Origin: an uncultured Alphaproteobacteria bacterium
GTDB taxonomy: Bacteria; Pseudomonadota; Alphaproteobacteria; UBA11222
Assembly: GCA_947258435.1 (NCBI GenBank)
Contig: CAMYID010000016.1
Location: forward strand, 1 to 64,000
Reading direction: 5' to 3'
Length of the DNA: 64,000 nucleotides
This document shows positions 44,589-60,535 of the stretch, in pieces. Within the stretch, counting starts at the first letter, position 1; the number at the start of each line of letters is the position of its first letter. A program made the position numbers and the translations under genes. Below the pieces are notes generated by a model, which was given only the letters and a program-made list of their open reading frames with translations, ran no database searches and was not told where the DNA came from.

Positions 44589-46322
44589 TCAGACCGAAAC
44601 CGCAATCGACAGATCGTCCTCCGCCTCATCGGCTCCGGTTTCTGGCTCGGGTTCGGGATCGCCATGCTCATAAGCCGCCAGGAAATCAAGCAGTTCCTGC
44701 CGGTACCGGTAATAGTCAGGATGTTCGAGCAACGCCTTGCGGCTGCGCGGGCGCGGCAGATCGACATTCATGATCTTGCCGATTTTCGCGTGCGGCCCGT
44801 TGGTCATCATCACAACCCGGTCGGCAAGCAGGATGGCCTCATCCACGTCATGGGTAACGCAGATCGCGGTGACACGTGTCCGCGACCAGACTTCCATCAG
44901 AACTTCCTGCAATTCCCAGCGGGTCAGGGAATCGAGCATGCCGAACGGCTCATCAAGCAACAATAATTTGGGTGACAGGGCAAAAGCACGTGCAATGCCC
45001 ACACGCTGCTTCATGCCGTTCGACATATCAGCCACCGGCTTGTCCAGCGCATCGCCCAGACCGACGCGCGACAGGTAATAGGCAATGATATCCCTGCGTT
45101 CCTGCTCGGTCGCATGGGGGTAAACCTGGGCGACCCCCAGCTCCACATTTTCCGATGCCGACAGCCAGGGGAAAAGGCTCGGTGCCTGAAATACGACACC
45201 GCGATCAGGCCCCGCGGAATCGATTTCATTCATATCGAGAATGATGCCGCCGCCACTGATATCGTTCAGCCCCGCCACCATCGACAGCACTGTCGATTTG
45301 CCGCAGCCCGAATGCCCGATCAGCGAGATGAACTCCCCCTTCCGCATCCGCAGATCAAAACCATCCACAACCGTCAAAGGCCCGTTCGGAGTGGGATAGA
45401 TCTTGGTGACTTCGGAAAACTCGACATAGCGTTCAGGATGCAGGGTCTGGCTTAACGCAGCTTTGCGGGCCGCCTTTGGCATATAATCGCGCGAGGTAAC
45501 GGGCACGACATCGGGCAGGCTCGGCCCGTCATCTTGCTGATTATCGCTTTCCATCCCCACCTGCATGAGATAAGCGGTGATATCGGCGCGCAGGCGAATG
45601 AACTGCGCATTGTCATTCATCGCCGAGCGGTCGCGCGGGCGCGGTATATCGACCCTGAAATCCGGTCCGAAGGTTGCGTTGGGACCGGGGTCAAGCGGGA
45701 TAATCCGGTCGGCCAGCAAAATCGCCTCATCCACATCATTGGTAATCAGGATGACGGTCTTGCGTTCGTGGCGCCAGATTTCCTCAATCTCGTCCTGAAG
45801 CTTGGCGCGGGTCAGCGCATCAAGCGCACTCAGCGGTTCATCGAGCAGCAGCACCTGGGGCATCATGGCAAGCGCTCGGGCCACCGCCACACGCTGACGC
45901 ATGCCGCCTGACAGCTCGGCCGGTTTGCGGTCGATCGCGTGGCTCAGCCCCACCATATCGATATATTTGCGCACATGGGCGGCGCGTTTGTCGCGCGGCC
46001 AGTCGGCAAATACCGAATCAACGGCCAGCGCGATATTCCCCTCGACACTGAGCCAGGGCATCAGGGAATAGCTTTGAAAGACGACGCCGCGCTCAGGCCC
46101 CGCCCCCTCAATCTGCCGCCCGTTGAGCAGAATTTCCCCCCGATCCGGTTCGATCAGTCCGGCAATGGCTGAAATCAGCGTCGTCTTGCCACTGCCTGAG
46201 AACCCGACAATGGCCACAAATTCGCCCTCCTCCATCGCCAGGCTGACATTATCGAGCACATCGGTTCTGCCAGCCCCCTCGCCATAGGATTTGCAGACAT
46301 TGCGCAGTTCCAGGAAAGCCAT
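44589..46322 (-). CDS. Nitrate ABC transporter ATPase with two fused ABC domains
   Basis: A 577-residue protein with two complete ABC domains joined end to end. Domain 1 has [19 protein letters not shown] and [11 protein letters not shown], but ITNDVDEA shows Asn in place of the H-loop His. Domain 2 has [19 protein letters not shown] and [11 protein letters not shown] and a normal VTHDVDEA. This is the NrtC/NrtD pair in one chain and would form the ATPase of one importer with NrtB. It ends the operon. The acidic tail ([14 protein letters not shown]) is unlike a substrate-binding regulatory domain seen in cyanobacterial NrtC. Confidence 0.9.
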
Positions 46323-46339
46323 CCTGTCGCTCCTATCGT

Positions 46340-47350
46340 TTATCGTTGATCGCCGAAGGTGAAGAAGGTCTGCAGGGCCAGCATTACCCGGTCCAGCAGA
46401 AAGCCAATAATGCCAATCGTGAAGACCGCCACCATGATCCGGCCGAGCGAATGGGAACTGCCATTCTGGAACTCGTCCCAGACGAATTTGCCCAGCCCCG
46501 GATTCTGCGCCAGCATTTCAGCCGCAATCAGCACCATCCAGCCAACGCCCAAAGACAGCCGCAAGCCGGTAAAGATAAGCGGCAGGGCCGATGGCAGCAC
46601 GAGCTTGAAGATCTTGGTGCGGGTCTTCAGCCGCAGAACCTTGCCGACATTCACAAGATCCTTGTCGATGGATGCCACACCCAGCGCGGTGTTGATGAGC
46701 GTCGGCCACAGCGAACACAGGGTCACGGTAATCGCCGAAGTCAGAAAGGATTTCTCAAAGAAAGGGTCGGGGCTGACGTAAAGCGCGCTGACCAGGATCG
46801 TCACGATCGGCAGCCAGGCCAGCGGCGAGACCGGTTTGAACACCTGTATCAGCGGATTGAACGCCGCATTGGCCGTACTGCTCAGCCCGCAAAGAATCCC
46901 CAACGGGACCGCCACGATCGTTGCCAGCAGGAACCCCATAAAGACCGTCTTCAGGCTTGTAAAAATCTGGTCGATATAGGTCGGCTTACCGGTATAGCCG
47001 CGGATCTTGACCTCGGCATCGGGATTTTTGGCAAGCTTTTTACGGTTGCGTTCCTCCTGCCGTTCATAAAAGGCATCCGCCTTTTCGCGCTGCGCGACGT
47101 GATCGTCCCACAACCCGACAGCCTCCTCCCAGACCTGCACCGGCCCCGGAATGGTCCCAAGGCTTGTTTCGATCTGCTGCGACACCTGCGCCCACACAAG
47201 AAGAAATGCCAGGATCGCCGCCAGCGGTATGCCGATGCCCCGCAGCGCTGCCCGCGCCAGCGTCGAAGGGCTTTCGCGCATCAGGGCCGGCAATGGATTG
47301 AAACGCGCCAGACCGGCTGCGAAAGAGGCATTCGACGAAATACTACTCAT
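46340..47350 (-). CDS. nrtB: Nitrate ABC transporter permease
   Basis: A 336-residue BPD-type permease. It has an N-terminal helix, a long charged insert (residues 80-140, [21 protein letters not shown]) on the periplasmic side, and a C-terminal set of about five helices. The EAA-type loop is [17 protein letters not shown], with [10 protein letters not shown] just before. It forms the membrane channel for nitrate together with the fused ATPase 17 bases downstream. GGAGAA precedes ATG 47350. Confidence 0.92.
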
Positions 47351-47411
47351 GTCAGTTCTCCGTTTGGGGAAATGCGGGCTGCGGTGCCATCGCGCCGCAG
47401 CCCGGCATTGC

Positions 47412-48824
47412 CTACTGCTTAACCACCTCGGACGCGGCAATGACCTCACCGCTCTTCAGCCCGATCGGAAAGCTGTCGAGATAGGCATTGGGTTTGCGGC
47501 CATCGAACGTAATCTCGTCGATGAACTCGCTTTGGGGCGCGCGATAGCCATCGGCATCCCAGGGAAAGTCCGCTTCATTCGCAAGCCCGTCATCGACCAG
47601 CGCGCGCGCTGCTTTCAGATAAAGGTCGGGACGGTAGACTTTCCGGGCAATCTCGTCATACCAGCTATCGGGTTTGGTTTCGGCGATCTGCCCCCAACGG
47701 CGCATCTGGGTCAGATACCAGACCGCATCGCTGTAATAGGGATAGGTCGCGTTGTAGCGGAAGAACACATTGAAATCAGGCAAGGGCCGCTTGTCGCCCT
47801 TCTCATATTCAAAAGTGCCGGTCATGCTGTTGGCGATGACTTCGCGGTCAGCGCCGACATATTCGCTGCGCGACAGGATCGTGACCGCTTCCTCGCGATT
47901 TGCGCCGTCATTTTCGTCCAGCCAGATCGCAGCACGGATCATCGCCTTGGTCATGGCAACCAGCGTATTGGGATGTTCATCCGCCCACTGCTTGCTGACA
48001 CCGAACACCTTTTCGGGATTGTTCTTCCAGATTTCATAATCGGTGATGACGGGTACACCGATCCCTTTGAAGACCGCCTGCTGATTCCACGGCTCGCCCA
48101 CGCAATAGCCATAGATCGTACCCGCCTCCATGGTTGCGGGCATCTGCGGCGGCGGGGTCACAGACAGCAGTGCCTCGGCCCTGATCTGCCCGGTGATGTC
48201 GGCCGGCGAATAGAATCCGGGATGAATGCCGCCCGCCGCAAGCCAGTAGCGCAGCTCGTAATTATGGGTCGAGACGGGAAAGACCATGCCCATATTGAAA
48301 GGCTTGCCTTCCGCACGATAACGTTCGACAACCGGCTTGAGATACTGCGCGCCGATCGGATGCACAGGCTTGCCATCCGCATGCGGAACATACTGTTTCA
48401 TTTCCTCCCAGACAGCGTTGGAGACGGTGATACCGTTACCGTTGAGGTCCATGCTGAAGGGGGTGATGATATGCGCCTGGGTACCAAACCCGATGGTTGC
48501 ACCCAAAGGCTGACCGGCCAGCATATGCGCGCCGTCCAGTTCTCCATCGATCACCCGGTCAAGCAGCACCTTCCAGTTGGCCTGCACCTCAAGCGTGACA
48601 TACAGCCCTTCATCCTCGAAATAGCCTTTCTCATAGGCAATCGCGAGGGGCGCCATATCGGTCAGCTTGATGAAGCCGAATTTAAGCTCGTCTTTCTCAA
48701 GCTCCTGCGCCGTTGCCGGCCCGGCTGACAGCCCGATGAAGGCCGTCGCTCCCAGCGCTGCCACGGAAAGCCCCCGCGCAGCCCTGCAAACTGTTCTGCT
48801 CAGTCTAAAAATACGCTGTTTCAT
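47412..48824 (-). CDS. nrtA: Nitrate-binding periplasmic protein NrtA
   Basis: A 470-residue solute-binding protein with a signal peptide ([22 protein letters not shown]). The domain order matches NrtA/Cmp[27 protein letters not shown] near the start, [17 protein letters not shown], and [16 protein letters not shown] around residue 255. No lipoprotein Cys is visible after the signal, so it may be a free periplasmic protein. It delivers nitrate to NrtB. Comparison with NasS (55808) shows the same fold without export signal in NasS. Confidence 0.92.
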
Positions 48825-48862
48825 AGCAATTCCCTGTTCAAAAATTCGTAACGGCCAGGCAT

Positions 48863-50122
48863 TCAGATTCTGGCGATGAAAGTCATCCAGATCCTGTCGG
48901 TATCGGTCAGACCGAAGACCGGCCGGCCGGCTTCGTAAAATGCGCCTTTGAGTTCGGCTGTATAACGCTTACGGAATGTTTTTCTGGCAAGCAGGTTGAC
49001 TTCATCGCCAAGGTCGGCACCGCCGCTATCGCCCTCAAACATGTGATAGGCACCAAGCAACCTGACCCCCATGAACTGTCCCGACAGCGAGACATAGCCA
49101 TCGGCCAGACCCGACACAGGTGTCACCAGAAACTTGTCAGCCCAGCCATTGAATTTGTGGCCGGTGGCAAGCGGGGTCTGCAATGCGGTCGTACCATCAC
49201 CGCTCAGCACTTCATAACCTGCCTTGGCGGTAATCCCTTTGGCCTTCAGCCCCAGTTCTGCATGATAGTAGTCATGATCGAAGCCCGCCGGATTGCTGTT
49301 GAAATCCGACTGATGCGCATATTCGCCGCTATAAAGCAGCGTAACGTCATCATTGAGCCTGTGTTTGCCGACAGCGCGCAGGCCATAGGTCTGCGTCGAC
49401 AGTGCAAGCAGATTGTCATAGTCGAGCAGATAGGCGTAGCCGGTGATCTTGGCCGGCGACCAGCCGCTATAGCTCACATTGAAGATGTGCGATGTCATCT
49501 CATGATCGCCCATCGGTGAGTCGCTGCCAAAGATGCGGTTCACATTATCGATAAAGATATAGGTCGCGCCGATATCCTTCAGCGACTGGTTGTCAATCCG
49601 CAATGCATCGAATGTCTGCTCGTTCTGGCGGAAACCGACATTGCCGATGAAGCGGTCATTATCGAGTTTTATACGCTGCCGGCCCGCGGTTATCCTTGTT
49701 TGGGGCAGTCCGGTAAAATCGATAAATGCCCGATTGATTTCCGTTTCATCGGGATCGGCGACAACAGGAAAACGTACTTTGCCATTTGTCGTGCTGTTAT
49801 AGTCATCGTCCCCGATATCGCGGATATCTTCCGCCTCGATCATGGCCGAAAAGCCTTCGAACCGGCCGGTATGATAGCCAAGCCGCGAACGCAAGGTGGA
49901 AGCGCGCGCATCTTCCGGCAAACCGGACTGATCCGCCATTTCATAGCGATAGCGGAAATTCGCGCTGAATTTTCCACCGGTTAGCGCAGCTTCAAAACTA
50001 TCGATTTTGCTGCTGCCCGCATCGGCACGCGCCGCGGGTGCAGCGCTCATCAACATCAGAAGTAAAAATATGGCGCCACCCGTCAAACGGGAGAAGCCGG
50101 TTGGGATTGTTCTGCTTTCCAT
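48863..50122 (-). CDS. Outer-membrane porin of the alginate-export family
   Basis: A 419-residue exported beta-barrel. The signal peptide ([19 protein letters not shown]) is followed by a barrel with [37 protein letters not shown] and [23 protein letters not shown] blocks typical of Alginate_exp porins, ending in WMTFIARI. Located between nasA and nrtA, it probably lets nitrate or nitrite cross the outer membrane (inference from context). ATG 50122 is preceded by GAGGT. The 83-base gap to nasA has a GC hairpin (50170-50186) but no clear terminator. Confidence 0.82.
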
Positions 50123-50205
50123 ACAGCATACCTCAGCTCTGCTTGAGTAAATCCCTCCCGTATCGGCTGGCGGCCTGGACGCCGCTCTGTTTTTTGCCAG
50201 GATGT

Positions 50206-52905
50206 TCATGCGACGTTTTCCGCCGCTTGTTGGTCTTGTGAACTTTGGCGCGCTGATCTGATCAGCGCATTGATTTCGGGAATGCAGGAGCCGCAATTGG
50301 TCCCTGCCTGCAGGCAATCGCCAACCGCTGCGGCTGTCGCCAGGTCACGCTCGCGAATGGCCTTCTCGATCGCGAACTGCCCCACCCCGAAGCAGGAGCA
50401 GATCGTCGGCCCGATATCGTCCTGCCCGCTGATCGGCCGACCGGCGAGCAGATCGCGCCGTGCCTCCGCGGGTAGCGTTGTCCGGGAGAAAAGGCCCGAC
50501 AACCAGGCACGCGAAGGCAGATGATGGTCAGCCGCGACAAACAGGCAGGCAACCAGCCGGTCGCCGGCAACGCGCGCGAACCGGTATTGCTTACGGGCTG
50601 CATCGCAATAGCTGATCCATTCATCCTGTGTGGTCGCACCCGTGACCGCACGCGCCCACCCTTCCCAATCCCCCGGTTCGCGCAGACCGGCCAACTCGTA
50701 CCGGCAGAATGCGGCCCCTGCCGCACGGACCCAGTAATCGACTTGCGTAACCGCACTCGGCACAGCCACAGACGACAGCAGGAAACCGTGCCATTGCGGT
50801 GTAAAAGGCGCGATGCGCACAGGCGTTGCCTTTGATTCCGGCTGCCCGGATACAGGGTCCACGGCCGGTGCGACCAATGCATCGGTCCGGCCTTGCGCGG
50901 CGAATTGATCCGTCCAGTGAAATGGCACGAATATTTCGCCCGGACGCTGATCGGTTGTGAACGCCACCCGCGCGACCATCCGCCCCCATCCACTTTCCAA
51001 CTGCGCCAAAGCACCGTCCTCAAGCTGAAACCGCCCAGCGTCGAGCGGGTGGATCGCCACAAACGGCTCGACCGTATGTTGTGAAAGGCGCGGCGACTTC
51101 CCTGTCCGCGTCAGGCTGTGCCAGTGGTCGCGCACCCGGCCGGTATTCATTATCAGCGGAAACGCACCATCGGGCTTGTTTTCAGGCCCGCGCGGGCTGA
51201 CCGCTATGAACTGCGCCTTGCCGGACGGGGTATAGAACCGTCCATCGGCAAACAGCCGCTCGGTCCCCTTTCCGGTCGCCGCCGCGCGAACAGGCCACTG
51301 CACCGGCTGCAACCGGTCATAATCCTGCGCACTGAGCGCGCTCAGGCCGGACAGGTCGAAATCGCGACTGCCGTCATTTTCAAAGGCAGACAACGCCGCA
51401 TGCTCACGGAAAATGTCAGCCGCGCTCGGGAAGTCAAACGCATCACCGAAGCCCATACGGTTCGCAACATCGCAAATGATCTCCCAATCCGCCCGCGCCT
51501 CACCGGGGGCAGGCAGAAAGGCGCGCTGCCGGGATATGCGGCGCTCGGAATTAGTCACCGTGCCATCCTTTTCGCCCCAGGCAAGCGCGGGCAGCAGAAT
51601 ATCGGCATAGTGCGTTGTGTCGGTGCGCCGTATGCAATCGGACACCACAACAAACACATCGCCGCCAAGCGCTGCACGGACCGCACCGGCGTTAGGCAGG
51701 CTGACCGCCGGATTGGTCGCCATGACCCAGACCGCCTTCACCTGCCCGTCTGCCACCGCATCAAACAGCTCCACCGCCCGTAGCCCCGGCTGCGCGGCAA
51801 GCTGTGTTGTCTGCCAGAAACGCGCGACCTTCTCGCGGTGATCGGGGTTTGCAAAGTCCATATGCGCGGCAAGCTGATTGGCAAGGCCGCCCACTTCCCG
51901 CCCGCCCATGGCATTGGGTTGTCCGGTGAGCGAAAACGGGCCGCATCCCGGCTTGCCGATCCGCCCGGTCAGCAGATGACAATTCAGGATGGCATTGACC
52001 TTGTCGGTACCGCTGCTCGACTGATTGATGCCCTGGGAATAAAGCGTCAGCGTTTGCGGGTGATCGCGGAACAGCTCGAAGAACCGGCGGACATCGCTCA
52101 CACGCAGACCGCAGGCTTTGGCAATCGCGGCCAGATCACCATCAGCCGCTCCCCCTGCCCGCGCCAAAGCATCTGCCAACCCTTCGGTATGGTTTTCGAC
52201 AAATGCCGCGTCCATGCAGCCCTCGCCATGGAGCCACGCCAAAAGCCCGTTGAACAGATGCGCGTCGCTACCCGATCGCAAGGGCAGATGCAGATCCGCA
52301 ATGTCGCAACTCTGCGTCCGGCGCGGGTCGATCACCACAACTTTGGTGCCATGTCGGGCGCGCGCGGCAACGATCCGCTGATACAGCACCGGGTGGCACC
52401 AGGCCGCATTCGACCCGATCAGGACGATCAGCGATGCCTGCTCGAAATCCGCATAGGCGTTTGGCACCGTATCGCTGCCGAAGGCGCGTTTGTGGCCGGC
52501 AACGCTTGAGGACATGCACAAGCGTGAATTTGTGTCGATATTGCCGCTGCCGATAAAGCCCTTCATCAGCTTGTTGGCGACATAGTAATCTTCGGTCAGC
52601 AACTGACCCGACACATAGAAGGCAACCGAATCCGGTCCGTGTGCGGCAATAATCTCGCTAAAACGCGTTGCCACAAGATCAAGCGCTGTGTCCCAGCTTG
52701 TGCGCTGCCCGTCAATTTCGGGATAAAGCAGCCGCCCGTCGAGATCCGTCGTCTCCCCCAGCGCGGAACCTTTCGAGCAGAGCCGCCCGAAATTTGCCGG
52801 ATGTGCCGGATCGCCCGCAATCTCCACCGTACCGTCTGTGACCCGCGCACGGATACCGCATCCAACGCCACAATAGGGGCATGTCGTCGCAATGGATTCG
52901 GTCAT
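50206..52905 (-). CDS. nasA: Assimilatory nitrate reductase catalytic subunit
   Basis: An 899-residue molybdopterin oxidoreductase that reduces nitrate to nitrite. The N-terminal [4Fe-4S] motif is CPYCGVGCG...LCSKG. The Mo-bis-MGD ligand Cys lies in TNSRLCMSSSVAGH. A C-terminal BFD-type [2Fe-2S] module (CSCFGVGQFAIEKA...CGSCIPEI) is fused, so ferredoxin- or NADH-linked electrons may enter there. ATG 52905 shares one base with the nirD stop (TGATG). A perfect 9-base-arm palindrome lies within its 3' end at 50250-50268. Confidence 0.96.
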   Translation of the reverse strand: MTESIATTCPYCGVGCGIRARVTDGTVEIAGDPAHPANFGRLCSKGSALGETTDLDGRLLYPEIDGQRTSWDTALDLVATRFSEIIAAHGPDSVAFYVSGQLLTEDYYVANKLMKGFIGSGNIDTNSRLCMSSSVAGHKRAFGSDTVPNAYADFEQASLIVLIGSNAAWCHPVLYQRIVAARARHGTKVVVIDPRRTQSCDIADLHLPLRSGSDAHLFNGLLAWLHGEGCMDAAFVENHTEGLADALARAGGAADGDLAAIAKACGLRVSDVRRFFELFRDHPQTLTLYSQGINQSSSGTDKVNAILNCHLLTGRIGKPGCGPFSLTGQPNAMGGREVGGLANQLAAHMDFANPDHREKVARFWQTTQLAAQPGLRAVELFDAVADGQVKAVWVMATNPAVSLPNAGAVRAALGGDVFVVVSDCIRRTDTTHYADILLPALAWGEKDGTVTNSERRISRQRAFLPAPGEARADWEIICDVANRMGFGDAFDFPSAADIFREHAALSAFENDGSRDFDLSGLSALSAQDYDRLQPVQWPVRAAATGKGTERLFADGRFYTPSGKAQFIAVSPRGPENKPDGAFPLIMNTGRVRDHWHSLTRTGKSPRLSQHTVEPFVAIHPLDAGRFQLEDGALAQLESGWGRMVARVAFTTDQRPGEIFVPFHWTDQFAAQGRTDALVAPAVDPVSGQPESKATPVRIAPFTPQWHGFLLSSVAVPSAVTQVDYWVRAAGAAFCRYELAGLREPGDWEGWARAVTGATTQDEWISYCDAARKQYRFARVAGDRLVACLFVAADHHLPSRAWLSGLFSRTTLPAEARRDLLAGRPISGQDDIGPTICSCFGVGQFAIEKAIRERDLATAAAVGDCLQAGTNCGSCIPEINALIRSARQSSQDQQAAENVA

Positions 52906-53243
52906 CAGCCAACCGCCCGGGATACCGGTTTCGCAGCGATTTGCAGATAGATACCGCCCCCTTCGAGCTTGACCGGATAGGTTCGCACACACCCTTCATC
53001 GGGCGCGACAGCTTCCCCCGTTGTCAGGCCGATCTTCCAGTTATGCAGCGGGCAGGTCACCGACTTGTCATGCACGATGCCTTGCGATAGTGGCCCCTCC
53101 TTGTGGGGACAGCGGTCATCCAGCGCGAATATCTCATCCGCTTTGGTGCGGAACAGGGCGATATCGCCCGCCCCTGTCCGGACAACGCGCGCACCCAGCA
53201 CGGGAACATCTTCCAGCGTGCCGACCTTCAGCCAGTCGCTCAT
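52905..53243 (-). CDS. nirD: Nitrite reductase small subunit
   Basis: A 112-residue Rieske-type domain protein. The sequence ALDDRCPHKEGPLSQG and SVTCPLHNWKIGLTTGEAV matches NirD, including the two Cys-X-His pairs (CPH and CPLHN), so it could hold a [2Fe-2S] cluster, whereas many NirD proteins lack it. It pairs with NirB in NAD(P)H-dependent nitrite reduction to ammonium. Its start overlaps the nirB stop by 4 bases and its stop overlaps nasA. Confidence 0.95.
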   Translation of the reverse strand: MSDWLKVGTLEDVPVLGARVVRTGAGDIALFRTKADEIFALDDRCPHKEGPLSQGIVHDKSVTCPLHNWKIGLTTGEAVAPDEGCVRTYPVKLEGGGIYLQIAAKPVSRAVG

Positions 53244-55693
53244 ACGCTTTCCAGTTCGATAATGGGTTGAAATTCACGCGTGACTGTCTCGGTCGCCGAT
53301 GTCTCTGTGGCACGTTCCGCCCAAGGATCGTCCTGCGCATACTTCTGGGATTCCAGGAAACGGGCGTGAAGCTGCTTGCGGTTTTCCGCGTCCTCGACGA
53401 CCCGGTCCTTCACATGCGCCAGGCCAACGCGTTCGATCCAGGGGGCCGTGCGTTCCAGATAATGCGCTTCCTCGCGGTAAAGCTGCAGAAACGCACCGCA
53501 ATATTCCTTCACCTCTTCAGCGGTTTTGACCTTGCACAGCAGATCGGTGGCGCGCACCTTGACCCCGCCATTGCCCCCGACATGCAGCTCCCAGCCCGAT
53601 TCAACGGCAACAACGCCAAAATCCTTGATCGTCGCTTCCGCACAATTGCGCGGACAGCCCGATACCGCCATCTTGAATTTGTGCGGCGTCCAGGTGCCCC
53701 AGCTCATTTTTTCCAGGTCGACGCCCATGGCGGTGGAATCCTGCGTACCGAAACGGCACCATTCCGAACCAACGCAGGTCTTGACGGTTCGCAGCGCCTT
53801 GCCATAGGCATGGCCTGACACCATTCCTGCCTTGTTGAGGTCCCCCCACACGGCAGGCAATTGCTCCTTCCGCACACCCAGCAGATCGATCCGTTGTCCG
53901 CCGGTGACCTTGACGGTGGGGATATCATACTTGTCGGCCACATCCGCGATCGCGCGCAGCTCGGCCGGGGTGGTAACCCCGCCCCACATGCGCGGGACGA
54001 CCGAATAGGTGCCGTCTTTCTGGATATTTGCGTGGGCGCGTTCATTGATGAAACGCGACTGCTGATCGTCGCTGTACTCGCCCGGCCAGGCGCAGATCAG
54101 ATAATAGTTCAGCGCCGGCCGGCAAACATGGCAGCCATCCGGGCTTTGCCAGTCGAGAAACTCGATCACCGCCGGTATCGATTTCAGGGACTGGGAAACA
54201 ATCGTCTGGCGCACCTCGTCATGGGTATGCTCCGTACACCCGCAAAGCGGCTTCTGTTTGGGTGAAGTCGAGTAATCGCCAACGATGCTGGCCAGAAGCT
54301 GCTCGACAAGCCCTGTGCAGGAGCCGCAGGAAGAGGACGCCTTCGTATGGGCGCGAACATCTTCAAGGGTGAACAGGTTTTTCTCGACAATCGCTGCGGA
54401 GATATCGCCCTTGCAGACGCCGTTGCAGCCGCAGATTTCCGCGTTGTCGGGCAACGCCGAAACCCGATCCTCGCCGCCTGTCCCGGAATCGCCCAGATGC
54501 GCCTGCCCGAACAGCACCGTATCGCGGAATTCCGAAATATCGCTGCTGTTGCGCATCAGATCGAAATACCAGGCGCCATCGCCAGTATCGCCGTAAAGCA
54601 CCGCCCCCAGAATTTTGTCCCCCTTCACGACCAGCTTCTTGTAGACGCTGTTATGGGGGTCGGAGAGGACGATTTCCTCGCTCCCCTCGGCGCTCAGGAA
54701 TTCACCGGCCGAAAACAGATCGATACCGGTGACCTTGAGCTTGGTCGAGGTCACCGAGCCCTGATAGCTGGCATAGCTGCGGCGGGCGAGGTGATTGGCG
54801 CAGACCTTGCCCTGCTCGAACAGAGGCGCGACAAGCCCGTAAGTCAGGCCGCGATGCTGCACACATTCGCCGACCGCATAGACCCGCGGATCGAATGTCT
54901 GCATGGTATCGCTGACGACCACACCGCGTTCGCAGTGAATGCCCGCCTTTTGCGCCAATGCGGTATTGGGCCGAATACCCACCGCCATGACGACGAGGTC
55001 GGCGGGAATTTCCTCGCCATCCTTGAAGCGCAACTTTTCGACACGACCGTCGCCGAGAATGGCCTCGGTCTCGGTGCTGAGGCGGAATTTCATGCCCCGC
55101 TCTTCCAGCGAACGCTGCAGCATGCCGCCCGCCGTCGCATCGAGCTGCCGTTCCATCAGGCTGTCCATCAGATGCACGACCGTGACATCCATGCCCTGCT
55201 TCATCAGCCCGTTCGCCGCCTCAAGCCCCAGAAGCCCGCCACCGATCACCACGGCATTCCTGTACTGACCTGCCGCATCGATCATCGCATCCACGTCATG
55301 AATATCGCGGAAGGTGATCACGCCGGGCAGATCATGTCCCGGCACAGGGATCACAAACGGATCGGATCCGGTCGCCAGCAGCACCCAGTCATACGGTTCG
55401 ACCGTTCCGTCGGATGCCACGATACGGTGGTTACGGCGGTCGATTTCGACGACCGTCTTGTTGGCATGAAGCGTAATATTATTTTCGGCATACCAGGCCA
55501 GGTCATTGACCATGATATCGTCAACCGTCTTCTCCCCCGCCAATACGGGTGAGAGCAGAATCCGATTGTAATTGCCGTAAGGCTCAGCCCCGAAGACAGT
55601 GATGTCGTACAGGTCTGGATTGAGTTTAAGCAGTTCCTCGACACAGCGCATTCCCGCCATGCCGTTGCCAATGACAACAAGCTTTTCGCGCAT
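53240..55693 (-). CDS. nirB: NAD(P)H-nitrite reductase large subunit
   Basis: An 817-residue flavoprotein reducing nitrite to ammonium. Domains in order: FAD/NAD-binding module (LVVIGNGMAGMRCVEELL, NAVVIGGGLLGLEAANG); BFD [2Fe-2S] module (CGCNGVCKGDIS and CGSCTG); siroheme/[4Fe-4S] domain with CVGSEWCRFGTQD and SGCPRNCAEATIKD giving the four cysteines; and a C-terminal helical cap. It follows the ANTAR RNA element, so its synthesis is the step under NasT control. ATG 55693 is preceded by GGAAGGGA. Confidence 0.96.
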   Translation of the reverse strand: MREKLVVIGNGMAGMRCVEELLKLNPDLYDITVFGAEPYGNYNRILLSPVLAGEKTVDDIMVNDLAWYAENNITLHANKTVVEIDRRNHRIVASDGTVEPYDWVLLATGSDPFVIPVPGHDLPGVITFRDIHDVDAMIDAAGQYRNAVVIGGGLLGLEAANGLMKQGMDVTVVHLMDSLMERQLDATAGGMLQRSLEERGMKFRLSTETEAILGDGRVEKLRFKDGEEIPADLVVMAVGIRPNTALAQKAGIHCERGVVVSDTMQTFDPRVYAVGECVQHRGLTYGLVAPLFEQGKVCANHLARRSYASYQGSVTSTKLKVTGIDLFSAGEFLSAEGSEEIVLSDPHNSVYKKLVVKGDKILGAVLYGDTGDGAWYFDLMRNSSDISEFRDTVLFGQAHLGDSGTGGEDRVSALPDNAEICGCNGVCKGDISAAIVEKNLFTLEDVRAHTKASSSCGSCTGLVEQLLASIVGDYSTSPKQKPLCGCTEHTHDEVRQTIVSQSLKSIPAVIEFLDWQSPDGCHVCRPALNYYLICAWPGEYSDDQQSRFINERAHANIQKDGTYSVVPRMWGGVTTPAELRAIADVADKYDIPTVKVTGGQRIDLLGVRKEQLPAVWGDLNKAGMVSGHAYGKALRTVKTCVGSEWCRFGTQDSTAMGVDLEKMSWGTWTPHKFKMAVSGCPRNCAEATIKDFGVVAVESGWELHVGGNGGVKVRATDLLCKVKTAEEVKEYCGAFLQLYREEAHYLERTAPWIERVGLAHVKDRVVEDAENRKQLHARFLESQKYAQDDPWAERATETSATETVTREFQPIIELESV

Positions 55694-55749
55694 CGGTCAT
55701 GTCCCTTCCGCAAGGTAAAGACAACCGCCTCAAACCCGCCTGATCCGGT

Positions 55750-55816
55750 CCCCATCGGTGGGGCCTGAGCGTGCGTAGTCTGAAGCGGGATAGATTTCCG
55801 ATGCCCGTCATTGGGC
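55750..55816 (-). promoter_or_regulatory. Dual hexaloop ANTAR-binding RNA element before nirB
   Basis: On the minus strand two short hairpins occur in order. P1 (55816-55803) is GCCC-AAUGAC-GGGC. P2 (55763-55750) is CCCC-ACCGAU-GGGG, extendable by two G-C pairs across one bulged A. Both loops are six bases, with A at position 1 and G at position 4, the hallmark of ANTAR target RNAs (established for NasR/EutV-type systems). P1 spans the nasS stop codon. The linker is 39 nt. The ANTAR protein NasT is encoded two genes upstream. No convincing downstream terminator stem was found, so how binding affects nirB expression is open. Confidence 0.75.
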
Positions 55817-57229
55817 TGCACCATCATTGGAGTTCGGAGCCGGCAACCCGCCGCCGGCCAGTTGGCGTTTCTCGAAGGAGCGAATATATCCCTCCGTATC
55901 CTGCGGATCGAATATCCGGCCATCGAGAAACAGATCTGGTCCCATGACAATTTCCCGGCTCGCATCGCAGAGTGTCCAGGGACCGGAATTCTTCCCTTCC
56001 GTCTTGTAATCGTGAAGGGGGTAGTCGATGCCGACAGCTTCGGCTGCCTGGCGATAAATATCGGGGCGATAGATGTCGCGCGCCGCAGCCACAAGATCGC
56101 GTGCCCCGTCAAGCTGCCGCCAGCGCACCATCTGCGTCATAATCCAAAGCGCATGGGAGCGCCACGGAAAACCGGCGGCATAGCGGTGAAACACGTTGAA
56201 ATCGGCAAGCTGCACAGGCTCGGCCGCCTGCCCGTAGCGGAACGAACCCGCCATCGACATTTTGACCACATCGAAATCCGCATCGACATAGTCAGGTTGC
56301 GCGATAAGCCGGGCAACCTCCATCCTGTTTTCGGGCTGGTCTGCCCATTGCCCGGCCTGAATCAGCGCACGCAGCAAGGCCTGATGGGTGTTGGGAAAAT
56401 TTTCCGCCCAGTCACGGGTGACACCAAGCACTTTCTCGGGGCCGTTGTTCCAGATTTCATAACCGGTGATCACAACCTCGCCACTGCCACGCGCCACCGC
56501 TACTTCATTCCACGGCTCGCCCACGCAATAGCCATCGATATCGCCCGCTTCCAGATGCGCCACCATCTGCGAAGGCGGCACCACGACGATCCGCACATCG
56601 CGGTCAGGGTCGATGCCGCCCGCCGCCAACCAATAGCGTAGCTGGTAGTTATGTGTGGATACGGGGAAAACCACAGCAAAGGTCATCGGCCGCCGCCGTT
56701 CACCGACATAGGCAGCGCTTACATCGCGCAAGACACCCGCATCCAGCGGCCGCTGTGCCATCTGAGCGGGGCTGTGCGCGCGCAGCCGCTCGCACAGCGC
56801 GCGCGACAGGGTGATTGCATTGCCGTTCAGATCCAGGCTGAGCGCCGTAATCATCGAGGTCCGCACCGCGCCGATGCCAAGGCTTGCGGCAATCGGAATA
56901 CCCGCAAGCATCTGCGCGCCATCCAAGACACCAAGCGCAACCTTGTCGCGGATATTGGCCCAGGAGGGTTCCTTCGACAGCGAAACCTCAAGCCCCTCCT
57001 GCGCGAAAAACCCCTTCTCCACTGCCACCACCAGCGGTGCACAGTCAGTCAGCGGAATAAAGCCCAGCGAAACAAGCGTGCGCTCAGGCTTGCCGACAGC
57101 AGATCTGTCCCCGGTTTTCGACCTGATTTGACGGTCGGGGCCGGCAAGCGAAAGAGATGCGGCGGTCGGCAAGCGATGATCCGCCTCGGCAATATTCGCC
57201 CCACCCTCGCCCTGGTTCACCAAATCCAT
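55808..57229 (-). CDS. nasS: NasS nitrate sensor (NrtA-like, cytoplasmic)
   Basis: A 473-residue protein with the NrtA fold ([62 protein letters not shown]) but no signal peptide, so it stays in the cytoplasm. NasS binds nitrate and holds NasT inactive when nitrate is absent (established for Azotobacter and Paracoccus). It follows nasT by 2 bases. It is about 50 residues longer at the N-terminus (SLSLAGPDRQIRSKTGDRS) than the SBP core. Its stop codon forms part of hairpin P1. Confidence 0.94.
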   Translation of the reverse strand: MDLVNQGEGGANIAEADHRLPTAASLSLAGPDRQIRSKTGDRSAVGKPERTLVSLGFIPLTDCAPLVVAVEKGFFAQEGLEVSLSKEPSWANIRDKVALGVLDGAQMLAGIPIAASLGIGAVRTSMITALSLDLNGNAITLSRALCERLRAHSPAQMAQRPLDAGVLRDVSAAYVGERRRPMTFAVVFPVSTHNYQLRYWLAAGGIDPDRDVRIVVVPPSQMVAHLEAGDIDGYCVGEPWNEVAVARGSGEVVITGYEIWNNGPEKVLGVTRDWAENFPNTHQALLRALIQAGQWADQPENRMEVARLIAQPDYVDADFDVVKMSMAGSFRYGQAAEPVQLADFNVFHRYAAGFPWRSHALWIMTQMVRWRQLDGARDLVAAARDIYRPDIYRQAAEAVGIDYPLHDYKTEGKNSGPWTLCDASREIVMGPDLFLDGRIFDPQDTEGYIRSFEKRQLAGGGLPAPNSNDGAAQ

Positions 57230-57231
57230 TC

Positions 57232-57816
57232 CTACACCAACAAATCCGCAGCCGCGATAATGCTTTTTGCGACATCGACCAGCTTCATATTGCGATCCAT
57301 CGCCAGATCGCGCATGGCCTTATAGGCGGTTTCCTCGTCATAGCCGCGCCGGCTCATCAACAATCCCTTCGCGCGATCAATCGCTTTGCGATCGACAAGC
57401 GATTGCTGCGCCTGCCGCAACTCACCACGCAGATTTTCGATTTCGCGAAAGCGCGCAATGGCCACATCGACGACCGGCCGCACCCGGTCCAGTTGCAACC
57501 CCTTGACCACATAGGCGCTGACCCCCGCCGCCACAGCGTCGCGAATGGTCTCGGGTTCGCCTTCTTCGGCAAACATAACGATGGGGCGCGGACGCTCGGA
57601 CGTGATCGTACGCATATGCTCGATCGTGTCACGATTGGGGGAATCAAGATCGATAATGATGATATCGGGATTGCAGCGCTCGACCTGACTTTGCAGAACG
57701 CCGCAGAAATCTGTCGCCGAGCCAGGCCGGATATCGACCTCATACCCTTCAGAACGGAGCGCGGTCTCTACCATTTTTGCGCGCTCCTGATCATCGTCGA
57801 CCACTAATACCTTCAT
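57232..57816 (-). CDS. nasT: NasT ANTAR-domain response-regulator antiterminator
   Basis: A 194-residue protein with a receiver-like domain (VLVVDDDQERAKMVETAL, IIIDLDSPNRD, SAYVVKG) and a C-terminal ANTAR RNA-binding domain (AIDRAKGLLMSRRGYDEETAYKAMRDLAMDRNMKLVDVAKSII). Released from NasS by nitrate, it binds dual-hexaloop leader RNAs to allow nas expression. I chose ATG 57816; ATG 57846 is in frame but lies only about 12 bases after the predicted sigma-54 start site, and has a poor ribosome site. First gene of the nas operon. Confidence 0.94.
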   Translation of the reverse strand: MKVLVVDDDQERAKMVETALRSEGYEVDIRPGSATDFCGVLQSQVERCNPDIIIIDLDSPNRDTIEHMRTITSERPRPIVMFAEEGEPETIRDAVAAGVSAYVVKGLQLDRVRPVVDVAIARFREIENLRGELRQAQQSLVDRKAIDRAKGLLMSRRGYDEETAYKAMRDLAMDRNMKLVDVAKSIIAAADLLV

Positions 57817-57868
57817 CACCGAACCACAAATACGCCCCACAGACATCGCGGGGTAACAGCGCTAATTT

Positions 57869-57884
57869 TGCAAGAGCTGTGCCA
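57869..57884 (-). promoter_or_regulatory. Sigma-54 promoter of the nas operon
   Basis: Minus strand TGGCAC-AGCTC-TTGCA matches the -24/-12 consensus TGGCAC-N5-TTGCW exactly. It places the start site near 57858, just ahead of nasT. Sigma-54 control by NtrC under nitrogen limitation is usual for nas genes (established). A perfect NtrC-type site was not found, but palindromes lie 160 and 370 bases upstream. Confidence 0.85.
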
Positions 57885-58218: not shown

Positions 58219-58235
58219 ATTGTGCAATGCACAAT
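58219..58235. promoter_or_regulatory. 17-bp palindrome at the end of the cyclase gene
   Basis: ATTGTGCA-A-TGCACAAT is a perfect dyad with one central base, touching the last codon of the adenylate cyclase gene. No T tract follows on the minus strand, so it is not an obvious terminator. It could be a protein-binding site for the nas region. Confidence 0.4.
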
Positions 58236-60535
58236 CACTTGCTTTCCATGATCCAGACGCCATCCCAGTCATCGCCCGGGGGATTTGCAATCAGCTGTTG
58301 CGACCGGTCGATATAGAGCTGCGACGCCTTGTCCCCGGCATGCAGCGCCAGCGCCGCCTCGAATTCACGGATCGCCTCGGGCCAGTTGCGCGCACGATAC
58401 AGGCCAAGTCCATCCCGGAAACGATTGCAGACATCCACGACATTGGGGAATTCCTCTTCGCCATAGACATCCATCACCTCATAGATCGCGACCGGTTCGG
58501 TCTTGCCTTTCACGACAAGCCGATCAACTTCGCGCATCCGATAGGTGCCGCGCAGCCCGTTATAGGTAAATTCACTGATCAGAACGTGCGCGCCATATTG
58601 CTTGGTCGCGCTTTCAAGGCGGGCCGCAAGATTCACCGCATCGCCGATGACCGTATAATCCATTCGCTTGGGGGAACCGACATTACCCGACACCACATTG
58701 CCGGTGTTCAGCCCGATGCCGATGGAAATGCCACGTTTGCCATCCTGTTCCTGCTGCCTGTTGAATTCCTCAAGCCGATGCATCATCTGAATTGCCGTTC
58801 GCACCGCACGATCGGGATCATCCTCATGCGGCAGCGGCGTTCCGAATATCGCCATGATCGCATCGCCGATAAACTTGTCGAGCATACCGCCCTCATCAGC
58901 GATACAATCCACCATCTCTGTGAAGTAATCATTCAGCAGACTGACAATACCCTGCGCGCCAAGCTCCTCGGACAGGGTGGTAAAGCTGCGGATATCGCTG
59001 AACATCACGGTAGCTTCACTGCTCGCACCGCCCAGAATCTCCGTCCCACCGGCTTTCAGCAACTGGTCGGCAACCGTTGCATCCATATACCGCGCCATGG
59101 TGGAGCGCACACGCTTTTCGCTGGAGATATCTTCCATCATCAGCATGCAGCCCAGATTGTCTTCCTCATCATTGGTCAGAGGTTGAATAGTCAGATTGAT
59201 CGACAGCGTTTCCTCACCGAATTCGGCGCTCGCATCGAGCACATTCATCGTATCCTGAGTTTCGGCAACATTTTTCAGCCCGTCGAAAATCCAGCTATTG
59301 GCATCGCTGAAAAAGGCTTCGGCTTCCGCCCCGACGACATCCTCCTCCGCAACCTTCATGATTCGCGCGCCGGCCGAATTGCAGGTCACGACCTTCAGCT
59401 CGTCATCGAAGGTAAGCACCGCGCTCGACATGCTTTCGAGCATGCTCTCATTATAGTTCTTCATGGCCTGCACGTCGGAGAACAGCTTGGCATTCTCAAG
59501 TGCCATGGAAATCTGCGATGTAAAGGCCTTCAGCCGTGCTTCATCTTCTGTCGTGAAGGGGCCGCCGCGCTTGTTGAGAACCTGGGTGACGCCGATAATT
59601 TTCCCTTCCTTGTTCGCAACCGGCACACACAGGATCGAGCGCGTGAAATAGCCTGTCTGCTTGTCAAAACTGGGGTTGAAGCGCAGATCGGCATAGGCAT
59701 GGGGAATATTTACCGTTTCGCCACTGGTGAAAACGGTACCCGCAATACCGACACTATTGGGAATGCGGATGGTTGAGGTTTCAAGCCCCTGCCCGATATG
59801 GGTGAACAGTTCCTGCGTCTTCTCATCATTGAGAAACAGGCTGGTTCTGTCCGCCTCCAGCAGGGTCGTGATTGCATTGATGATCATCTGCAACAAGGGG
59901 CCGAGATTGATTTCGGATGCCACACCGGCAACGATATTCAGGAAATCAGCTTCCTGCGCGCGGGCATCCTCCATCCGCTGCATATAAATCGTGTTCTGAA
60001 TGGTGATCGACGCCTGCTGCGAGATAGCCTCAAGCAACCGCAAATCCGCCTGGGTGAAGGTGCCATGCCGGCTGTTCAGCGCCTGGGCAACGCCGATCGT
60101 TTCCCCATCGAGCGTCCGCACCGGCGCACAGCAAATGTTTTGCGTCCGGAAGCCGGTCGCCTGGTCGACCGAGGCGTCAAATCGCGGGTCCGCGTAAGGG
60201 TCCTCGATCAGAACCGATTCTCCGGAGGTAAACACGTAACCGGCAACGCCCTTATCGCGTTCGAGCCGGATTTCACGATTGATATTGCCCTGCGCGACAT
60301 GAGAATAAAGTTCGTCATTCACCGTGTCATAAAGAAACAGGGTGCCGCGCTCCGCCCCCAGCGCTTCGGCCAGCGCATCGACGAGCACAATCAGCTGCTG
60401 ATCGAGCGAACGGAACGTCGCAATGCGGTTTGAAATCGACAGCAAGGTCTGCGGCACATTGCTGTGCCGGTCATGATCGGGCAGCGCCTGCATCGGTTCG
60501 ACAGGTGCAAGTTCTGTTACACTTCCTTCCGCCAT
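58235..60535 (-). CDS. Adenylate cyclase with two GAF domains and a PAS-like domain
   Basis: A 766-residue soluble signalling enzyme. Two GAF domains (about 30-180 and 205-355) sense small ligands, a PAS-like region (about 365-480) follows, then a class III cyclase domain (about 495-685). The metal Asp residues are in VMFSDIRSFT and GDAIMAIFG. Lys in MLDKFIGD and Asp in DYTVIGDAVNLAARLES match ATP specificity. A short TPR-like tail (FRDGLGLYRARNWPEAIREFEAAL) ends it. It probably makes cAMP in response to GAF-bound ligands. The coiled-coil gene 42 bases upstream is likely co-transcribed. Confidence 0.92.
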   Translation of the reverse strand: MAEGSVTELAPVEPMQALPDHDRHSNVPQTLLSISNRIATFRSLDQQLIVLVDALAEALGAERGTLFLYDTVNDELYSHVAQGNINREIRLERDKGVAGYVFTSGESVLIEDPYADPRFDASVDQATGFRTQNICCAPVRTLDGETIGVAQALNSRHGTFTQADLRLLEAISQQASITIQNTIYMQRMEDARAQEADFLNIVAGVASEINLGPLLQMIINAITTLLEADRTSLFLNDEKTQELFTHIGQGLETSTIRIPNSVGIAGTVFTSGETVNIPHAYADLRFNPSFDKQTGYFTRSILCVPVANKEGKIIGVTQVLNKRGGPFTTEDEARLKAFTSQISMALENAKLFSDVQAMKNYNESMLESMSSAVLTFDDELKVVTCNSAGARIMKVAEEDVVGAEAEAFFSDANSWIFDGLKNVAETQDTMNVLDASAEFGEETLSINLTIQPLTNDEEDNLGCMLMMEDISSEKRVRSTMARYMDATVADQLLKAGGTEILGGASSEATVMFSDIRSFTTLSEELGAQGIVSLLNDYFTEMVDCIADEGGMLDKFIGDAIMAIFGTPLPHEDDPDRAVRTAIQMMHRLEEFNRQQEQDGKRGISIGIGLNTGNVVSGNVGSPKRMDYTVIGDAVNLAARLESATKQYGAHVLISEFTYNGLRGTYRMREVDRLVVKGKTEPVAIYEVMDVYGEEEFPNVVDVCNRFRDGLGLYRARNWPEAIREFEAALALHAGDKASQLYIDRSQQLIANPPGDDWDGVWIMESK

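What the first reader, a model, noticed from the sequence alone, without database searches (positions are those of the whole stretch)
55750..55816. Dual hexaloop ANTAR RNA element lies inside the nas operon, with its first loop over the nasS stop codon
Directly visible: P1 GCCC-AAUGAC-GGGC and P2 CCCC-ACCGAU-GGGG on the minus strand, both with A at position 1 and G at position 4 of a six-base loop. Two-hexaloop RNAs of this type are bound by ANTAR proteins (established), and NasT, encoded just upstream, is one. The placement is unusual. The element follows nasT-nasS rather than leading the operon, so the sensors could be made without NasT activity while nirB-nirD-nasA-nrt depend on it. P1 overlaps a translated stop codon, so ribosomes finishing nasS would disrupt P1. 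That could couple nasS translation to the switch. No terminator stem is clear downstream, so the mechanism may differ from classic antitermination.
Basis: partly seen in the sequence, partly recalled or inferred. Interest (0 to 1): 0.75.

Follow-up and report, generated by a model that had tools for sequence, protein, structure and literature searches.

The report
Nitrate-switch RNA on nasS stop codon
The messenger RNA between a nitrate-sensor gene and the nitrite-reductase gene it precedes carries a hairpin that looks like a docking site for the RNA-binding regulator NasT; the kind of switch and its position after the sensor genes are already known, but here it lies on the sensor gene's stop codon and lacks the usual promoter and terminator, so the off-switch is probably built differently.

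Summary
P1 GCCC[AAUGAC]GGGC (55816-55803) and P2 CCCC[ACCGAU]GGGG (55763-55750) are there, and 0.07% of shuffled gaps hold such a pair. P1 is well supported as a NasT (ANTAR) hexaloop: it is the best hit in 64 kb, both strands, of two covariance models built only from other genomes' NasT leaders, scores within the range of held-out leaders, and NasT is the only ANTAR protein in the genome. P2 is weak: neither model finds it; it is the tip of a 64-nt hairpin (55788-55725) that keeps 24 of 25 pairs despite 13 substitutions in the sister species. (1) A leader behind nasTS is the rule (21 relatives here, Paracoccus published), not unusual. (2) What is unusual is that P1 lies on the nasS stop codon, the gap has no promoter (the only sigma-54 site is upstream of nasT), and no terminator overlaps P2, whereas relatives have P2 overlapping a U5-10 terminator. 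(3) "No terminator stem" is half right: a conserved hairpin exists, but its tract is only UUGUCUUU. Best reading: a remodelled NasT leader inside a sigma-54 operon; mechanism (weak attenuation or control of nirB translation) untested.

The parts
57869..57884 (-). sigma-54 -24/-12 promoter TGGCACAGCTCTTGCA upstream of nasT; the only strong one for the operon
   Evidence: Exact match to TGGCAYN5TTGC, best-scoring minus-strand site of the window, conserved in sister species as TGGCATGGCTCTTGCA. Promoter activity not tested.
57232..57846 (-). nasT, response-regulator receiver + ANTAR domain; only ANTAR protein found in the genome
   Evidence: Pfam PF00072 and PF03861; own-genome search
55808..57229 (-). 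nasS, nitrate/nitrite-binding sensor (NMT1-like)
   Evidence: Pfam PF13379; orthologues adjacent to nasT in relatives
55821..55830 (-). P0: CC-AATGAT-GG inside the end of nasS, a weak further A1/G4 hexaloop (2 pairs here, 3 in the sister)
   Evidence: Sequence; sister copy UCC-AAUGAC-GGA is the second-best R1 hit in L031. Candidate only.
55803..55816 (-). P1: GCCC-AAUGAC-GGGC hexaloop hairpin, the best-supported NasT site
   Evidence: Top hit in the window of R1 (16.8 bits) and R2 (11.9 bits); matches P1 of L122 GCCC[AATGAT]GGGC
55808..55810 (-). nasS stop codon UGA = loop positions 3-5 of P1 (G4 is its middle base)
   Evidence: Sequence; sister has tandem UAA-UGA across the same loop
55725..55788 (-).
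   Evidence: MFE -35.5 kcal/mol; 24 of 25 pairs kept in the sister despite 13 of 64 substitutions, 2-8 of 5000 random controls reach that
55750..55763 (-). P2: CCCC-ACCGAU-GGGG, second candidate hexaloop
   Evidence: Sequence; A1/G4 kept in sister; not found by R1 or R2
55717..55724 (-). UUGUCUUU, imperfect U tract directly after the 64-nt hairpin (weak terminator tail)
   Evidence: Sequence; relatives' leaders have 5-10 consecutive T
55700..55723 (-). small hairpin UGUCUUU-A-CC-UUGC-GG-A-AGGGACA that pairs the nirB Shine-Dalgarno (AAGGGA) with the U tract
   Evidence: In the MFE folds of both species; one loop change between species
55690..55696 (-). CCGAUGC around the nirB start AUG, complementary to P1's 3' arm and flank GCAUCGG (55804-55798)
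   Evidence: Predicted pairing probability 0.79-1.0 in both species; 4% of random AUGs are paired as strongly upstream, so suggestive only
53240..55693 (-). nirB (assimilatory nitrite reductase), first gene behind the element
   Evidence: Pfam
44589..53243 (-). rest of the operon: nirD (Rieske), NasA-type nitrate reductase with C-terminal Fer2_BFD, porin (Alginate_exp), nrtA, nrtB, nrtCD (two ABC domains)
   Evidence: ORFs and Pfam; tightly packed, the 114-nt nasS-nirB gap is the largest between nasT and nrtCD

Best explanation
The nasS-nirB gap is a remodelled NasT leader inside a single sigma-54-driven nas operon. Transcription starts upstream of nasT and runs through nasT-nasS. In the nascent RNA the P1 hexaloop on the nasS stop codon is the NasT docking site; behind it a 64-nt hairpin (P2 loop at its tip) followed by a poor U tract and a Shine-Dalgarno hairpin forms the default off-state for nirB, either as a weak attenuator or as a cap on nirB translation, or both. 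When nitrate or nitrite frees NasT from NasS, NasT binds P1 (possibly passing on to P2) and lets nirB and the genes behind it be expressed, while NasT and NasS are made regardless. Shown here by computation: the parts, P1's match to NasT leaders, conservation of the hairpin, absence of a gap promoter and of a canonical terminator. Inferred from Paracoccus and EutV work: NasS release of NasT and hexaloop binding. Guessed: how binding relieves the off-state.
For: P1 is the best hit in 64 kb both strands of two models built without this genus (R1 E 0.15; R2 E 0.28); scaled to the 137-nt single-strand gap that is about 2e-4 and 3e-4. Held-out canonical NasT leaders score 15-32 bits with R1, P1 16.8. 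NasT is the only ANTAR protein. Inspection of the R1 hits that outscore P1 elsewhere in the genome shows coding sequence without a terminator. In the nasT loci of relatives the scan mostly finds a canonical NasT leader ahead of structural or transport genes. Hairpin conservation, p about 0.0004-0.0016. Single sigma-54 site upstream of nasT. NasT binding of a nasS-nasA leader is published for Paracoccus (PMC3795266), where mutating hairpin HI abolishes expression (PMC5424462). A single hexaloop is the minimal ANTAR ligand (PMC8934654).
Against: Only two species carry this version, so conservation tests are thin. P2 is unsupported by the models and RNAfold closes its loop with A1-U6. No structure mutually exclusive with the hairpin was found, so the switch step is missing. 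In the full-length fold P1 itself is out-competed (probability 0-0.22). Lengthening the EutV linker to 14 nt or by 20 nt kills antitermination (PMC3369931, PMC8934654). Genome-wide, the P1 hit is not significant by itself (E 6.9).
Confidence: 0.52

Rival explanations
1. Translational lock opened by the nasS ribosome. The end of nasS (P1's 3' arm and flank GCAUCGG) pairs with the nirB start region CCGAUGC, and the Shine-Dalgarno is in its own hairpin, so nirB is translated only when ribosomes finishing nasS open the structure. P1's likeness to an ANTAR loop is incidental or an added layer.
For: Predicted pairing probability of the AUG helix 0.79-1.0 in the window and 1.0 in the sister; the helix shares bases 55804-55803 with P1; the first 78 nt around and after the nirB start are unchanged between species and the flank AUCGGAA is too.
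Against: 4% of random AUGs are paired as strongly, and the duplex energy is only the best 4% of shuffles and ordinary against natural controls; no covariation because both strands are invariant; with P1 formed a 5-bp version of the helix can persist.
Confidence: 0.22
2. Plain intercistronic hairpin: the 64-nt hairpin partly terminates transcription or protects the nasTS mRNA end to set the ratio of regulators to enzymes, and NasT does not act here.
For: The hairpin is the best-conserved structure in the gap; no canonical switch geometry; imperfect U tract fits partial termination.
Against: It leaves the only ANTAR protein without a known target and P1's match to NasT leaders as chance (about 2e-4 in this gap).
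Confidence: 0.17
3. Exactly: P1 and P2 are a classical dual-hexaloop pair, both bound by NasT. (Overlaps with the best explanation, which needs only P1.)
For: Both loops have A1/G4 with C-G closing pairs; 39-nt linker lies within 26-59 nt seen in NasT leaders of Rhodobacteraceae and others; A1/G4 of P2 survive two loop changes in the sister.
Against: Retaining A1 and G4 with two random loop changes has a chance of 0.4; P2 not found by R1 or R2; P2 lacks the overlapping terminator by which canonical P2 loops were recognised here.
Confidence: 0.22
4. The dual motif is P0 + P1 (short linker), with the 64-nt hairpin as a separate terminator.
For: In the sister UCC[AAUGAC]GGA-AC-UGCCU[AAUGAC]GGGCA, and P1 and P0 are the two best R1 hits of the 7.4-kb locus.
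Against: P0 has only two contiguous pairs in the window, below the three that define the motif (PMC3369931); it is coding sequence, so its conservation says little; P1 does not overlap the hairpin.
Confidence: 0.12

Closest known systems
NasT-bound nasA leader of Paracoccus denitrificans (PMC3795266, PMC5424462)
   Same: nasT-nasS-[leader]-structural nas genes; NasT binds the leader RNA; first hairpin needed for induction
   Different: Paracoccus gap is about 200 nt; here 114 nt, P1 lies on the nasS stop codon and no promoter was found in the gap
Canonical NasT leaders of relatives found here (e.g. L122, L118, L066, L076, L015, L032)
   Same: C-[A..G..]-G hexaloops; P1 GCCC[AATGAT]GGGC in L122 is one base from the window's P1
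   Different: Those have P2 overlapping a terminator with 5-10 T, lie 124-349 nt behind the upstream stop codon, and most have their own sigma-54 site
EutV dual-hexaloop antiterminators of Enterococcus (PMC3369931, PMC8934654)
   Same: Hexaloops with essential A1 and G4
   Different: EutV linker 5-12 nt and P2 mutually exclusive with the terminator; here 39 nt and P2 nested in the hairpin
Actinobacterial ANTAR RNAs that overlap RBS/start codon (PMC8164766)
   Same: ANTAR RNA as possible control of translation, some inside ORFs
   Different: Those are reported to repress translation when bound; here NasT would have to relieve
Rfam narK RNA (RF03032) and P11 (RF00625)
   Same: Both hit, below gathering score, the canonical leader of L032, so they may describe this kind of leader
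   Different: No match in the window

Membership tests
ANTAR-target dual-hexaloop RNA | Two hairpins with six-base loops, at least three pairs each | tested here: met
   P1 and P2 with four WC pairs each
ANTAR-target dual-hexaloop RNA | A at loop position 1, G at position 4, conserved in orthologues | tested here: inconclusive
   Kept in both loops of the one sister species; no further orthologues found
ANTAR-target dual-hexaloop RNA | Short linker (5-12 nt in EutV targets; 2-25 nt accepted in actinobacteria) | tested here: not met
   39 nt; but 26-59 nt occur in NasT leaders with a canonical P2/terminator
ANTAR-target dual-hexaloop RNA | P2 overlaps, and is mutually exclusive with, an intrinsic terminator | tested here: not met
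   No P2+terminator at this site in the scan that finds it in most relatives' NasT loci
NasT leader RNA | Matches a covariance model of NasT leaders | tested here: inconclusive
   P1 is top hit of R1 and R2 in the window, within the range of held-out leaders; P2 half not matched; genome-wide E 6.9
NasT leader RNA | Lies ahead of nitrate-assimilation genes in a genome with NasT | tested here: met
NasT leader RNA | Bound by NasT; needed for nitrate induction | not testable with these tools
   Needs EMSA and reporter work
Intrinsic terminator | GC-rich hairpin followed by a U run | tested here: inconclusive
   Strong conserved hairpin but tail UUGUCUUU; the simple scan does not call it

The most novel reading that the evidence does not exclude
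An ANTAR loop whose essential G4 is the middle base of a stop codon: one RNA element reads both NasT (nitrate) and the act of finishing nasS translation, and controls access to the nirB start codon rather than transcription termination. The same nucleotides would serve as stop codon, protein-binding loop and anti-start strand.
Probability: 0.15. Interest if true: 0.68.

Novelty: new variant of a known kind. Interest (0 to 1): 0.42.

Why it matters
NasT leaders control nitrate assimilation and, in Bradyrhizobium, N2O reduction. A version without its own promoter and without the textbook terminator would show how such a switch can be absorbed into an operon. It also gives a natural test of whether one hexaloop is enough for an ANTAR protein and whether ANTAR proteins in proteobacteria can act on translation.

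Tried and rejected
Rfam scan of the region: no ANTAR-related match, but also none for most canonical leaders, so it cannot decide. Classical terminator formed from P2's 3' arm: absent; the best alternative is ACCG/CGGU, four pairs (by eye). Sigma-54 promoter in the gap: none. Search for another NasT leader in the genome with R1 and R2: R1 hits outscoring P1 are coding sequence without terminators; the R2 hits (E 2.65 and above) were not inspected. P2 stem conservation: the stem re-registers, not informative by itself. Long-range AUG helix: attractive, but only about 4% against controls. An off-by-one in the Shine-Dalgarno hairpin pairs makes its printed probabilities meaningless; the hairpin is taken from the MFE folds only.

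Full report
What is there. On the minus strand the genes run nasT (57846-57232), nasS (57229-55808), nirB (55693-53240), nirD, a NasA-type nitrate reductase, a porin and nrtA-nrtB-nrtCD. The operon is tightly packed; the 114 nt between nasS and nirB is its largest gap. The nasS stop UGA occupies loop positions 3-5 of P1, so the G4 that ANTAR proteins need is the middle base of the stop codon. Shuffling the region gives such a pair in 0.07% of cases; over 64 kb both strands such pairs are not rare (2 seen, 0.7 expected), so the strength of the observation lies in its place.

Comparison set. NasS-guided searches gave about 110 loci from other genomes. A mechanical scan for an A1/G4 hexaloop whose loop and 3' arm pair with sequence running into at least five T found the canonical P2/terminator in most nasT loci. 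In 21 of them the leader lies between nasS and the next gene, in 15 between nasT and a NasS-like gene, 124-349 nt behind the upstream stop (one duplicate locus and two false P2 calls inside nasS left out). Twelve of the 21 and all of the 15 have a strong sigma-54-like site upstream of the leader. So a NasT leader behind the regulators is the usual arrangement, as published for Paracoccus. The same scan, with a looser demand of four T, finds no P2/terminator on the minus strand of the window and one unrelated chance hit on the plus strand (6017).

P1 is a NasT-type loop. A covariance model from 20 short-linker leaders (R1) searched without filters over the window puts P1 first (16.8 bits, E 0.15; next 12.7). 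A second, from nine long-linker leaders (R2), also puts P1 first, though only just (11.9 against 11.8 bits). Loci that hold a leader and were not used to build R1 score 15-32 bits. Scaled to the gap the two E-values are about 2e-4 and 3e-4. Genome-wide the R1 hit has E 6.9 and four hits outscore it; those lie in coding sequence and lack a terminator. R2 gives three further weak hits in the genome that were not inspected. NasT is the only ANTAR protein found.

P2 is the tip of a larger structure. In the one same-genus genome, P1's loop is unchanged and its stem kept; P2 keeps A1 and G4 while loop positions 2 and 5 change, which chance allows with probability 0.4. Neither model finds P2. The region 55788-55725, which contains P2, folds into a 64-nt hairpin in both species; 24 of 25 pairs survive 13 substitutions (2 of 5000 random and 8 of 5000 spectrum-matched controls), with one double compensatory change and three one-sided ones. 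It is followed by UUGUCUUU, not the 5-10 consecutive T of relatives. The MFE fold then pairs UGUCUUU with the nirB Shine-Dalgarno.

One promoter. The best sigma-54 site on the minus strand of the window is TGGCACAGCTCTTGCA at 57884-57869, just upstream of nasT, conserved in the sister. Nothing comparable lies in the gap. A promoter of another type in the gap is not excluded; the sigma-70-type scan shows none there.

A possible translational layer. P1's 3' arm and flank, GCAUCGG (55804-55798), is complementary to CCGAUGC around the nirB start (55696-55690), and full-length folds of both species pair the start codon this way. Random AUGs reach such pairing in 4% of cases and the duplex energy is unremarkable against natural controls, so this stays a hypothesis. 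If real, ribosomes finishing nasS, or NasT holding P1, would weaken the lock.

Mechanism. Established elsewhere: nitrate or nitrite releases NasT from NasS and NasT binds the leader (PMC3795266); a single hexaloop is the minimal ANTAR ligand, with successive binding of P1 and P2 (PMC8934654). Here I infer that NasT docks on P1 and relieves an off-state made by the 64-nt hairpin and the nirB start structures. Which step, termination or translation, cannot be settled by sequence: the U tract is poor for termination, and no structure mutually exclusive with the hairpin was found.

Membership. It works like a NasT leader, and P1 passes as one. As a canonical dual-hexaloop antiterminator it fails two defining features, the P2-overlapping terminator and the short linker, the latter not decisive because NasT leaders with 26-59 nt exist. 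I therefore call it a remodelled variant, not a standard member.

Noticed in passing
L032-L034, L036, L037, L063, L066, L118, L119, L120, L122: Many NasT leaders carry three A1/G4 hexaloops in a row (a distal one 33-47 nt before P2, one 6-11 nt before P2, and P2 on the terminator), more than the two of the textbook motif; could fit the NasT oligomer reported for Paracoccus.
   Followed up: partly
L053, L054, L058, L060, L062, L068, L069, L076, L080, L042: A class of NasT leaders with P1-P2 linkers of 26-59 nt, some with an extra hairpin in the linker, well beyond the limit found for EutV.
   Followed up: partly
window 55697-55620: The first 70-odd bases of nirB and its start region are identical between the two species although about 30% of synonymous codons in nasS differ; suggests an RNA-level constraint at the nirB start.
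   Followed up: partly
window 57853-57835: Hairpin CCCCGC-GAUGUCU-GUGGGG right after the sigma-54 promoter, over the annotated nasT start, with a G-U to G-C change in the sister; the true nasT start may be the next ATG downstream.
   Followed up: no
window 58235-60535: GAF-GAF-PAS-adenylate/guanylate cyclase gene directly upstream of the nas operon, also there in the sister genome.
   Followed up: no
L032 2679-2817: Canonical NasT leader hits Rfam P11 (RF00625) and narK RNA (RF03032) below gathering score, so these two families may describe ANTAR leaders.
   Followed up: no
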